Origin: Candidatus Poribacteria bacterium
GTDB lineage: Bacteria > Poribacteria > WGA-4E > WGA-3G
Direction: 5' to 3'
NCBI GenBank assembly: GCA_009841255.1
Contig: VXMD01000055.1
Span: forward strand, 1-64,000
DNA: 64,000 bases
Of this stretch, positions 20,376 to 22,542 are shown piece after piece. Under the pieces are notes generated by a model, which did no database searches, had not been told where the DNA came from, and saw only the letters and a program-made list of their open reading frames with translations. Numbering within the stretch: the first letter of the stretch is position 1; the number at the start of each line of letters is the position of its first letter. Made by a program: the position numbers and the translations under genes.

Positions 20376-20404
20376 TTGACAAAAATAGTGACATAATGTA
20401 TTAT
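20376..20404 (+). promoter_or_regulatory. Strong sigma-70-type promoter of LamG operon
   Basis: TTGACA (20376-20381) and TATTAT (20399-20404), spacer 17 nt. Transcription would start near 20411, giving an unusually long leader of about 365 nt before the GTG at 20778. Confidence 0.75.
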
Positions 20405-20521
20405 TTTGTAACATAATTATCGTTTTTGCGTCAGATTTCTTATATTACGAATTGAATTTGTATATGCATGGGATGAAAAGATCGGCGTGAAGTGGGTAGA
20501 TTGTTACAATAATCAAACTAC

Positions 20522-20582
20522 GGGAGATCCTTCTTAGTGTTTTAGTCTGTGATAGCGATAGAAACACCAAAAAGGACCTCCC
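20522..20582 (+). promoter_or_regulatory. Long hairpin in the leader of the LamG gene
   Basis: GGGAGATCCTTCTTAGTGTTT (first arm, 20522-20542) pairs with the arm at 20562-20582 over 21 positions with three mismatches; the loop is 19 nt. It lies about 110 nt into the predicted leader and just before a second structured element. Confidence 0.65.
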
Positions 20583-20590
20583 ACGGTATT

Positions 20591-20686
20591 GCAAGCAAAA
20601 CCGCCAAGTGCTTGTGTCTGTTTAGGTAGCAACTTGGGTTATTGGAATTGTGTAAGTTTCCAAAGAGGCATCTCTGTTTTGCTTGC
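20591..20686 (+). ncRNA. Candidate structured leader RNA (multi-branch)
   Basis: A perfect 11-bp closing stem (GCAAGCAAAAC 20591-20601 with GTTTTGCTTGC 20676-20686) encloses three smaller stems: CCAAGT/ACTTGG (20604/20632), TTGGAA/TTCCAA (20642/20658) and AGAG/CTCT (20664/20672). A cloverleaf-like fold of 96 nt in a 5' leader could be a cis-regulatory RNA. It is not a tRNA: no standard D- or T-arm spacing or anticodon arm is seen. I do not recognise it as a known riboswitch. Confidence 0.45.
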
Positions 20687-20777
20687 TTATTAGACAAATT
20701 TTTTCGGAAAAGGTTTACTTTTTTCGTTAAAATTTTTTTCAGATAATACCGCAGTCCACTAAAGGAGGAAAATTCAA

Positions 20778-21614
20778 GTGAGACTATCTATTTCGATACT
20801 CGCCATCGTTGTATTGGCGATCGGTATTTCAGTTTCTGCGTTCGCAGACATAAATGATGGCGTTGTTGCCGCCTGGACATTCGACGATGGCAAGGTAACG
20901 GATGCCATTGCTAAGGCACACGGTGAACTCTTCAAGGGAGCTACAATTACCAATGATGGTAAATTTGGCAAGGCGTTGGATGTTGATGGCAACCAAGATT
21001 CACGGGCAGATATTGAGTTCAACGATAAACTTGAGTCGATTATTGAAGGCGCACATACTGTCTCCTATTGGCTCTATGTCCGAGAGGGAAGAAACCACTC
21101 CGGCGTTTGGAAAGGCGAAAAGGTCGGTTGGGGGGCAAACTTCACCTTCCGGATGGTGACAACCAGTGATACCGGTTTGACGTGGGGAACATGCAGTGGC
21201 GGTGCTGAAAACTGGTTCGCCACGGATGGTGCCATTGAACCCGATACGTGGTTCCATCTCTGCCAGACAGCAGATGGTGAGGAGGCAATTGGATACGTAA
21301 CGCCAGAGGGCGGGAAAACCGAAATACCTGTGAGTGGTCAACAAAATCCGAAACTCGCGCCGGAACCCTACAATTTGTTCAAAGATCGTCCTTTGGAACT
21401 CGGAGCAGGTCGAGGTATCGGTGGTAATGATGGTAACGATACGTTCCTTGATGGCATCATCGACGATGTTATCATCTGGGACCGCGCCCTCACTGAAGAT
21501 GAAGTCAAGGAACTCGGAAGTGGCAAACGTCCAGAGAAAGCACTCGCTGTCAAAGCGGAAGGTAAATTAGCCACCACCTGGGGAAAGGTCAAATCCTACC
21601 ATCATCACCGCTAA
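20778..21614 (+). CDS. Secreted LamG-domain protein 1
   Basis: 278 residues: signal peptide (IVVLAIGISVSAFA), then a LamG/concanavalin-like jelly roll beginning VVAAWTFDDGKVTDA, with the terminal strand DGIIDDVIIWDRALTEDEV that is typical of LamG-like domains. These domains bind glycans or surface ligands. GTG 20778 has a perfect AAAGGAGG upstream. The C-terminus carries the recurrent tail EGKLATTWGKVK, followed by a histidine-rich SYHHHR. It is about 43% like the next gene by eye and probably co-transcribed with it. Long structured leader upstream. Confidence 0.85.
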   Translation: MRLSISILAIVVLAIGISVSAFADINDGVVAAWTFDDGKVTDAIAKAHGELFKGATITNDGKFGKALDVDGNQDSRADIEFNDKLESIIEGAHTVSYWLYVREGRNHSGVWKGEKVGWGANFTFRMVTTSDTGLTWGTCSGGAENWFATDGAIEPDTWFHLCQTADGEEAIGYVTPEGGKTEIPVSGQQNPKLAPEPYNLFKDRPLELGAGRGIGGNDGNDTFLDGIIDDVIIWDRALTEDEVKELGSGKRPEKALAVKAEGKLATTWGKVKSYHHHR

Positions 21615-21702: not shown

Positions 21703-22542
21703 ATGAAGCAAATTTGTCTGTTTTTCATTTTAGCACTTATAGTCTTCAGTGCCAATAGCTACGCCGGGCTTGACGAGGGTCTCGTCTCTGCCTGGACCTT
21801 TGACGACGGCACAGCGAACGATGCCATCGGAGATAACGATGGCGAATTTGTGAACGGTGCCAGCACCACAGATGGGGAATTCGGGATGGCACTTAACCTT
21901 GAAAACCCCGAGAATCCTGCAACCGGTGATAACAGTGGACAGTATGTCGAAATTCCCTCATCCTCCAGTCTTGAAAAAGAGGACGGTATCTTTTCTGTCT
22001 CCTTATGGGTCTACGTCAGAGCCGGGGGTGGCAGGAACCACGCTGGGATGTTCTTCAAAGGCAACAAGGTCGGTTGGGGTGACCACTTCATGGTACGGAT
22101 GTGTACCACGAACGCCACTAACATGACTTGGGGCAGCTGCTGGGCAGGCAGTGAAGGTTGGTTCGCCACCGACAACGTTTACGCCGAAGAGGAATGGGTT
22201 CATGTCGCTTACGTCGTTGATGGTTCAGAAGCAACAGCGTATGTGACCTCTTCCGTTACCGGTGATACTACAGTTCCCGCCAGTGGACAGCAGAACCCGA
22301 GACCAATTGAGACCCCACTGCTGACGTTCCCAGAACGTCCGGTTGAAATCGGTGTCGGACGGCAAGTCGGCGGTAATGCTGGCAACGACTTCTGGATTGA
22401 TGGCATGATTGACGAGGTCTATTTCTGGGAACGCGCCCTCAGTGAAGACGAAGTCCGTGACCTTGCTGGTGGCGCGACTGTCGTTGCTGTGGAAGCGCAG
22501 GGCAAACTCGCGACCACGTGGGCACACATCAAGAAACGCTAA
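21703..22542 (+). CDS. Secreted LamG-domain protein 2
   Basis: 279 residues with a signal peptide (FFILALIVFSANSYA) and a LamG domain (LVSAWTFDDGTANDA ... DGMIDEVYFWERALSEDEV). It is a tandem paralogue of LamG protein 1, 88 nt downstream, with AAGGAG before ATG 21703. It has extra residues after the first strand (LENPENPATGDN). The tail is QGKLATTWAHIKKR, a variant of the recurrent C-terminal motif in which G is replaced by A. A strong terminator follows. Confidence 0.85.
   Translation: MKQICLFFILALIVFSANSYAGLDEGLVSAWTFDDGTANDAIGDNDGEFVNGASTTDGEFGMALNLENPENPATGDNSGQYVEIPSSSSLEKEDGIFSVSLWVYVRAGGGRNHAGMFFKGNKVGWGDHFMVRMCTTNATNMTWGSCWAGSEGWFATDNVYAEEEWVHVAYVVDGSEATAYVTSSVTGDTTVPASGQQNPRPIETPLLTFPERPVEIGVGRQVGGNAGNDFWIDGMIDEVYFWERALSEDEVRDLAGGATVVAVEAQGKLATTWAHIKKR

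What the first reader, a model, noticed from the sequence alone, without database searches (positions are those of the whole stretch)
20376..20777. Long structured leader upstream of the LamG1-LamG2 operon
A strong promoter is followed by about 365 nt of leader with a 21-position hairpin and a separate 96-nt element with a perfect 11-bp closing stem and three inner stems. This amount of ordered pairing is unlikely by chance and matches no element I know.
Basis: seen in the sequence. Interest (0 to 1): 0.58.

Follow-up and report, generated by a model that had tools for sequence, protein, structure and literature searches.

The report
Transposon-derived RNA opposite a secretion gene

Summary
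In detail: there is a good promoter (20376-20404), a 367-nt leader, a 21-position hairpin and a 96-nt element closed by 11 bp, all beyond chance. The fold is conserved. 48 copies occur in 31 of 38 genomes of one Poribacteria genus, with tree-aware compensatory changes, and none scores above 52 bits in the other 46 genomes of the phylum. Rfam has no match.

The interpretation changes in three ways. (1) The better-supported RNA strand is minus: the consensus fold is stronger there and G-U pairs favour it 203 to 102. The conserved unpaired 3' "tail" is, on the minus strand, a promoter-like box. All 20 boxes examined away from the RNA precede one secreted-protein gene family in promoter orientation. 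(2) The hairpin and a stem arm derive from the left end of a DDE-transposase insertion sequence; the fold is also kept within vertically inherited loci. (3) 44 of 46 testable copies abut, divergently, signal-peptide genes of several families that share a C-terminal KLxTTWGxIK tag.

Most likely it is a domesticated, stress-type-promoter RNA antisense to the 5' region of secreted-protein mRNAs, down-regulating them. Regulation, transcription and sigma-factor identity are inferred.

The parts
20376..20404 (+). sigma-70-like promoter of the LamG operon, TTGACA-17-TATTAT
   Evidence: 11 of 12 consensus bases; the same cassette lies upstream of 12 of 48 copies at up to 6 of 30 mismatches, plus G007 by alignment
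20411..20777 (+). predicted 5' leader of the LamG1-LamG2 mRNA, overlapping the minus-strand RNA
   Evidence: promoter position and ORF start; fold z -4.5; start site inferred
20690..20718 (-). promoter-like box GTAAACCTTTTCCGAAAAAATTTGTCTAA read on the minus strand (-10-like GTCTAA at 20690-20695)
   Evidence: present in nearly all 48 copies; orphan copies precede one secreted gene family in promoter orientation; no conserved structure
20505..20686 (-). predicted structured RNA of about 180 nt; the 5' end falls at the closing stem; the 3' end is uncertain
   Evidence: minus-strand consensus fold and G-U bias; ends inferred
20591..20686 (-). junction domain: closing stem P2 (20591-20601/20676-20686) with inner stems
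20522..20582 (-). long hairpin P1; in relatives homologous to the RBS/start-codon hairpin of a transposase gene
20625..20641 (-). TAACCCAAGTTGCTACC, identical to the terminal inverted repeat of an insertion-sequence/MITE family; arm of stem P3
   Evidence: 67 sites in the genome against 2 for the control; 17 of 17 identical to the IS left end
20778..21614 (+). LamG1: signal peptide, Laminin_G_3, C-terminal tag GKLATTWGKVK
   Evidence: Pfam PF13385 E 1.8e-13; tag
21703..22542 (+). LamG2: signal peptide, Laminin_G_3, C-terminal tag GKLATTWAHIK
   Evidence: Pfam PF13385 E 2.1e-16; tag

Best explanation
The feature is a conserved structured RNA gene of about 180 nt on the minus strand, divergent from and overlapping the 5' leader of the LamG operon. 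It is driven by a promoter-like box at 20690-20718 that is shared with another secreted-protein gene family. It arose when the left end of an insertion sequence (terminal repeat plus the hairpin that masks the transposase start site) became joined to that promoter, and it has since been kept as an RNA. Most likely mechanism: under the condition that activates the box (probably envelope stress) the RNA is made antisense to the 5' region of the neighbouring tagged secreted-protein mRNA and lowers its output in cis, by duplex formation or transcription interference. Shown by computation: conservation, structure, strand bias, association, IS homology. Inferred: transcription, the nature of the sigma factor or regulator, and the repressive effect.
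For: 48 matches of at least 67 bits in 31 of 38 genus genomes; no match above 52 bits in the other 46 of 84 phylum genomes. Minus-strand alignment of 40 copies: consensus fold -60.2 against shuffled -14.8 +- 3.5 (z -12.9); plus strand -49.7 (z -9.5). In the 48 pairs common to both folds, G-U on minus 203 against 102 on plus; 30 sequences against 8. 88.0% of cells paired and 98 cells changed on both sides (shuffles 40.4; slid structures at most 49.8% paired). Double-compensatory branch events 11 in P1 (null 1.3, max 6) and 10 in P2-4 (null 2.2, max 9), none of 200 nulls reaching either; pairing also kept within LamG1-locus and LamG2-type-locus sets taken alone. The box: 57 sites in the genus, control 0; 20 of 20 examined boxes away from the RNA precede one gene family, 16 of them at 75-85 nt; also in another genus. 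44 of 46 testable copies lie divergently next to signal-peptide genes, 43 of 43 complete ones tagged. IS homology: 71 of 97 aligned positions, score 69 against a shuffled maximum of 26.
Against: No transcript data. No strong intrinsic terminator after P1 on the minus strand (U fraction 0.38) and no specific pairing of the RNA with its neighbour's start region (median percentile 0.53 among control genes). The box resembles an ECF promoter only by a recalled consensus, its spacer is more conserved than a sigma site needs, and the paper search for that consensus found nothing. An R-scape-like G-test gave only 1 of 61 pairs at E<0.05. RNAalifold with default scoring gave no pairs on A1; RIBOSUM scoring did. 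P2-4 compensation within LamG1 orthologues alone is weak (2 events; 29 of 200 nulls reach it). At least five LamG1 orthologues lack the unit. A plus-strand promoter cassette was found in only about 13 of 48 copies, so the overlap of the two transcripts is not shown for most.
Confidence: 0.5

Rival explanations
1. Plus-strand cis-regulatory leader (riboswitch, protein-binding or stability element) of secreted-protein mRNAs.
For: Always upstream and co-oriented with signal-peptide genes (44 of 46); plus-strand fold also well beyond shuffles (z -9.5); sigma-70 cassette conserved at two kinds of locus.
Against: Minus strand folds better in 28 of 33 copies for P1 and carries twice the G-U pairs. 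No expression platform: no RBS pairing above control, no consistent terminator in the tail (mean z -0.56), no conserved upstream ORF. Gap to the gene varies from 11 to 352 nt (386 nt in L185 by the coordinates).
Confidence: 0.22
2. Trans-acting small RNA of an envelope-stress regulon whose targets are other mRNAs; the position beside secreted-protein genes is only its genomic home.
For: Own promoter-like box shared with a secreted LTEEQ-containing protein family and, once, with a gene whose start reads like an anti-sigma-factor antagonist (by eye).
Against: 44 of 46 testable copies next to one class of genes is unexpected for a trans sRNA; no special pairing with the neighbour's start region; no target search was possible genome-wide.
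Confidence: 0.15
3. Decaying insertion-sequence remnants: the conservation reflects recent common origin of IS copies and past selection on the transposase leader hairpin.
For: P1, the terminal-repeat arm and about ten transposase codons are homologous to an IS left end.
Against: Box, P2, P3 and P4 are not in the three IS ends examined; pairing is maintained within vertically inherited LamG1 and LamG2-type loci; always beside tagged genes.
Confidence: 0.1

Closest known systems
Stress-sigma or CpxR-dependent sRNAs of enterobacteria (MicA, RybB, CpxQ; recalled, only search listings seen)
   Same: Structured RNA with a promoter-like element shared with an envelope-protein gene; tied to exported proteins.
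   Different: Here the RNA lies divergently beside its presumed target, is partly IS-derived, and has no shown expression, terminator or seed.
Cis-antisense RNAs / excludon-type overlapping divergent transcripts (recalled)
   Same: Minus-strand RNA overlapping the 5' region of the divergent gene.
   Different: Strongly structured and conserved, and repeated at many loci beside one class of genes.
Insertion sequences with an RBS-sequestering transposase leader (IS982-like by Pfam DDE_Tnp_1_3; IS10/IS50 mechanism recalled)
   Same: Terminal repeat and start-site hairpin are homologous.
   Different: No intact transposase in the unit; joined to an external promoter box; maintained under selection at host loci.

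Membership tests
Any Rfam 15 family | covariance-model score above the gathering threshold | tested here: not met
   0 matches in 64 kb; sub-threshold only at E<=5
Riboswitch / cis-acting leader | conserved structured 5' UTR upstream of functionally related genes | tested here: met
   44 of 46 testable copies upstream of signal-peptide genes
Riboswitch / cis-acting leader | structure conserved on the mRNA strand rather than its complement | tested here: not met
   minus strand favoured
Riboswitch / cis-acting leader | expression platform (terminator, or RBS sequestration) | tested here: not met
Riboswitch | ligand binding | not testable with these tools
   needs in-line probing
Antisense / stress-induced sRNA gene | own promoter facing the RNA | tested here: inconclusive
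   box in promoter orientation, 20 of 20 orphan boxes before one gene family; no transcript data
Antisense / stress-induced sRNA gene | terminator at the 3' end | tested here: inconclusive
   long hairpin but only weak U enrichment, 0.38
Antisense / stress-induced sRNA gene | regulates a target RNA | not testable with these tools
   no expression data
ECF/sigmaE-type promoter | GGAACTT-N15/16-GTCTAA (recalled) | tested here: inconclusive
   consensus CGAAC(C/T)TTTTCCGAATAGATTTG(A/T)CTAA; sigma factor unknown
IS982-like insertion sequence | terminal inverted repeat and leader of the transposase gene | tested here: met
   TIR 17/17 in the window; 71 of 97 aligned positions for G003b against an IS end
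IS982-like insertion sequence | intact transposase and both ends | tested here: not met
   the RNA copies hold only about ten recognisable transposase codons (by eye); the nearby intact transposase in L091 is DDE_Tnp_1_3

The most novel reading that the evidence does not exclude
A transposon's start-masking leader hairpin and terminal repeat have been domesticated, together with a stress-type promoter, into a regulatory RNA that stands opposite the genes of a Poribacteria-specific class of C-terminally tagged secreted proteins and tunes their output when the envelope is stressed.
Probability: 0.4. Interest if true: 0.78.

Novelty: new variant of a known kind. Interest (0 to 1): 0.6.

Why it matters
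It is a conserved structured RNA family with no Rfam entry in an uncultured sponge symbiont phylum. If true, it shows an insertion-sequence leader hairpin being recruited as a host regulatory RNA, with compensatory changes after recruitment. It also points to two further unknowns that can be tested from sequence: a promoter box shared by the RNA and an envelope-protein gene, and a C-terminal tag on well over a hundred secreted proteins of one genome.

Tried and rejected
Rejected or not supported: (a) RBS sequestration by the plus-strand P1 arm: own gene -10.15 against control genes -10.01 kcal/mol, 118 control start regions, 42 copies. The 12 LamG1 copies alone were somewhat lower (-11.9 against -10.2), not convincing. 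(b) Leader peptide: an ATG in P1 in 32 of 48 copies (the scan is loose; one or two of these are not at the homologous place), reading frames of differing length; longest minus-strand ORFs inconsistent in the 16 of 48 copies printed. (c) Attenuator: tail hairpin not consistent, mean z -0.56 over 47 of 48 copies, one too short. (d) Pairing of the minus-strand RNA with the neighbour's start region: median percentile 0.53 of 60 sampled controls per copy. (e) Default RNAalifold on A1 gave no pairs and so a sequence-only model R1; RIBOSUM scoring gave the fold used for R2. (f) R-scape-like G-test: 1 of 61 pairs. (g) Whole-unit transposon: no; only the 17-22-nt arm and the P1 region are shared with repeats. 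(h) viral contigs: 0 matches of the P1-loop pattern. (i) Pfam and NCBIfam for the LTEEQ protein: nothing above cut-off.

Selection before counts: alignment A1 left out 5 of 38 copies then known (two with internal deletions, one truncated, two near-duplicates); A4 used 40 of the 48 R2 matches. Of 57 genus boxes, 31 distinct boxes in fetched loci were examined, of which 20 were not tied to the RNA. Two copies at contig ends could not be scored for a downstream gene. Two of the 44 downstream genes (L096, L185) and one tag (L094) were read by eye because the script's pattern missed them.

Full report
OBSERVATION. The sequence is as described: promoter TTGACA-17-TATTAT at 20376-20404, GTG start of LamG1 at 20778, a 96-nt element with a perfect 11-bp closing stem at 20591-20686 and a 21-position hairpin at about 20522-20582. 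All fold better than shuffles on the plus strand (z -4.5 whole leader; -4.2 hairpin, -2.95 element), but better still, in z, on the minus strand (-7.5 and -4.75). Rfam has no match at its own thresholds.

RELATIVES. A BLAST-type search of 97 related genomes found long homologues in most same-genus genomes, often several per genome at different loci. A MAFFT alignment of 33 copies (A1) gave no pairs with default RNAalifold, but with RIBOSUM scoring gave a fold of -47.6 against column-shuffled -19.1 +- 3.5. On A1, 35 of 61 pairs have changes on both sides, 106 such cells against 41.6 in shuffles, and slid structures fall to at most 46% paired from 82.8%. A tree-aware null that redistributes substitutions gives 3-4 double-compensatory branch events against 21 observed (max 9 of 100 in each of two nulls), though pair-breaking events (170) are no fewer than in the null (165 or 146). 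A stricter R-scape-like G-test had little power: 1 of 61 pairs.

DISTRIBUTION. Covariance model R2 finds 48 matches of at least 67 bits in 31 of 38 genomes of the genus. Matches fall off below 52 bits, and in the 46 other genomes of the phylum the best is 41 bits. An exact pattern from the P1 loop hits 12 contigs among 84,980 species genomes, all 12 titled as Poribacteria, and no viral contig. The window genome has two copies, here and at C20:42519-42733.

NEIGHBOURS. Of 48 copies two end at contig ends. 44 of the other 46 are followed, on the R2 strand, by a signal-peptide gene: 42 found by script with gaps of 11-352 nt, plus L096 and L185 by eye. The genes fall into families: LamG1, LamG2-type (both Laminin_G_3), GPWLWM-type, FYADFE-type, MKRVYQF-type and MRKIYFG-type; Pfam knows only the first two. 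Apart from LamG1-LamG2-type and GPWLWM-MKRVYQF, profile comparison between families aligns mainly the last 20-30 residues (LamG2-type against MRKIYFG-type aligns 96 columns; the MKRVYQF group had taken in two GPWLWM-group sequences). All 43 complete downstream proteins end in a tag of the form V(D/E)PxGKLxTTWGxIKxx (one read by eye). This tag is far commoner than the RNA: 142 hits at E<0.01 in this genome (150 of 250 candidates scored) and 94 matches of a degenerate DNA pattern against 0 for its control. NCBIfam has no model for it among the ten proteins scanned. The paper on poribacterial single-cell genomes mentions a different tag, TIGR04183 (PMC3909097, passages only).

WHICH STRAND. On the plus-derived structure G-U cells (182) hardly exceed A-C cells (169), which is odd for a plus-strand RNA. 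Folding both strands of the same alignments indicates the direction. For P1 the consensus energy is -36.7 on minus against -27.9 on plus, and minus is lower in 28 of 33 copies; for P2-4 it is -20.3 against -19.2, minus lower in 20 of 33. With 40 copies (A4) the figures are -60.2 (z -12.9) against -49.7 (z -9.5). In the 48 pairs common to both folds, G-U on minus is 203 against 102 on plus, and 30 sequences lean to minus against 8 to plus. The minus structure has 88.0% of cells paired and 98 doubly changed cells.

THE TAIL IS A PROMOTER-LIKE BOX. The strongly conserved 3' tail shows no structure (alifold 0). Read on the minus strand it is CGAAC(C/T)TTTTCCGAATAGATTTG(A/T)CTAA, followed after a few nucleotides by the 5' arm of P2, where a transcript would start. 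It looks like an ECF-type promoter (recalled consensus; a paper search for the strings found none). The box occurs 57 times in the genus, control 0. Of 31 distinct boxes in fetched loci, 11 belong to the RNA. The other 20 all precede, in promoter orientation, one secreted protein family (MKQKFFAI...), 16 of them at 75-85 nt. It precedes the same family in three genomes of another genus, and in one more case a gene whose start reads like an anti-sigma-factor antagonist by eye. The protein contains LTEEQ and looks Spy/CpxP-like to the eye only; Pfam and NCBIfam give nothing.

TRANSPOSON ORIGIN. One arm of P3 is the terminal repeat of an inverted-repeat family. The motif has 67 sites against 2 for the control. 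Of 22 inverted pairs in fetched loci, 14 have at least 6 of 7 identical flanking bases (TANNNTA) against 3.9 expected. Weak R2 matches, many at contig ends, led to three insertion-sequence left ends: the terminal repeat, a hairpin over the ribosome site, and ATGGACTTGACTATTGTAGC..., the start of a transposase. Near one RNA copy (L091) an intact transposase with the same start is DDE_Tnp_1_3, hence IS982-like by recall. P1 of the RNA and the following transposase codons align to these ends (G003b: 71 of 97, score 69 against a shuffled maximum of 26; the window copy: the terminal repeat, score 39 against 28). Box, P2, P3 and P4 are not in the three IS ends. Pairing is kept inside vertically inherited sets. 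For LamG1 orthologues, P1 is 86.5% paired against a null maximum of 84.4 (6 double events, null 0.5), while P2-4 is weak (2 events). For LamG2-type loci both domains exceed the null maximum of pairing. So the fold was maintained after capture.

PRESENCE AND ABSENCE. Five LamG1 orthologues (G008, G022, G025, G028, G035) keep the upstream gene, a promoter-like stretch and the RBS but lack the unit (a sixth locus, G013, was not resolved), so the gene does not need it.

MECHANISM. The simplest reading that fits all of this is a minus-strand RNA, expressed from the box, antisense to the 5' region of the adjacent secreted-protein gene. Where the plus promoter cassette lies beyond the RNA (about 13 copies) the two transcripts would overlap throughout. 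Repression in cis is my inference; activation, protection or a trans role are not excluded. Tests for a plus-strand switch (RBS pairing, terminator, upstream ORF) failed.

NOVELTY. No Rfam family and no paper found for Poribacteria with riboswitch, structured RNA or noncoding RNA in relevant use (search listings). Each ingredient is of a known kind (antisense or stress sRNA, IS leader hairpin); their fusion and repeated placement beside tagged secreted proteins is new to me.

Noticed in passing
G000, about 142 places, in window 20778-21614 and 21703-22542: A C-terminal tag V(D/E)PxGKL(A/S/T)TTWGx(I/L/V)K on well over a hundred proteins of about 200-350 aa in one genome, without a model in Pfam or NCBIfam in the proteins scanned; it looks like a new sorting or anchoring signal.
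   Followed up: partly
G000, 67 sites of GGTAGCAACTTGGGTTA, e.g. L031 1500-1683: Small inverted-repeat elements of about 150-270 bp with 7-bp TANNNTA duplications, sharing ends with an IS982-like transposase element.
   Followed up: partly
L020 904-1422, L004 1619-2119 and orthologues: Secreted 170-180-aa protein family with LTEEQ and a Gly/Arg-rich C-terminus, preceded by the same box in 20 of 20 cases examined.
   Followed up: partly
L299 about 1003 (minus strand): A box-like sequence 90 nt before a gene starting MTTQIRHQNGISILEPSGKIVGDSVSELRA, which reads like an anti-sigma-factor antagonist; not family-searched.
   Followed up: no
L189 4425-4590 and L190 1501-1664: Two divergent copies without P1 and without a LamG-type neighbour; the minus-strand RNA there would be the leader of a lipoprotein-like gene MKILNPM.
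   Followed up: partly
G003, about 60 weak R2 matches, many at bases 42-300 of contigs: High-copy IS ends breaking the assembly of this genome.
   Followed up: partly
L186 and L191, downstream of the core: A second, partial P1-like hairpin between the RNA and the LamG2-type gene.
   Followed up: no
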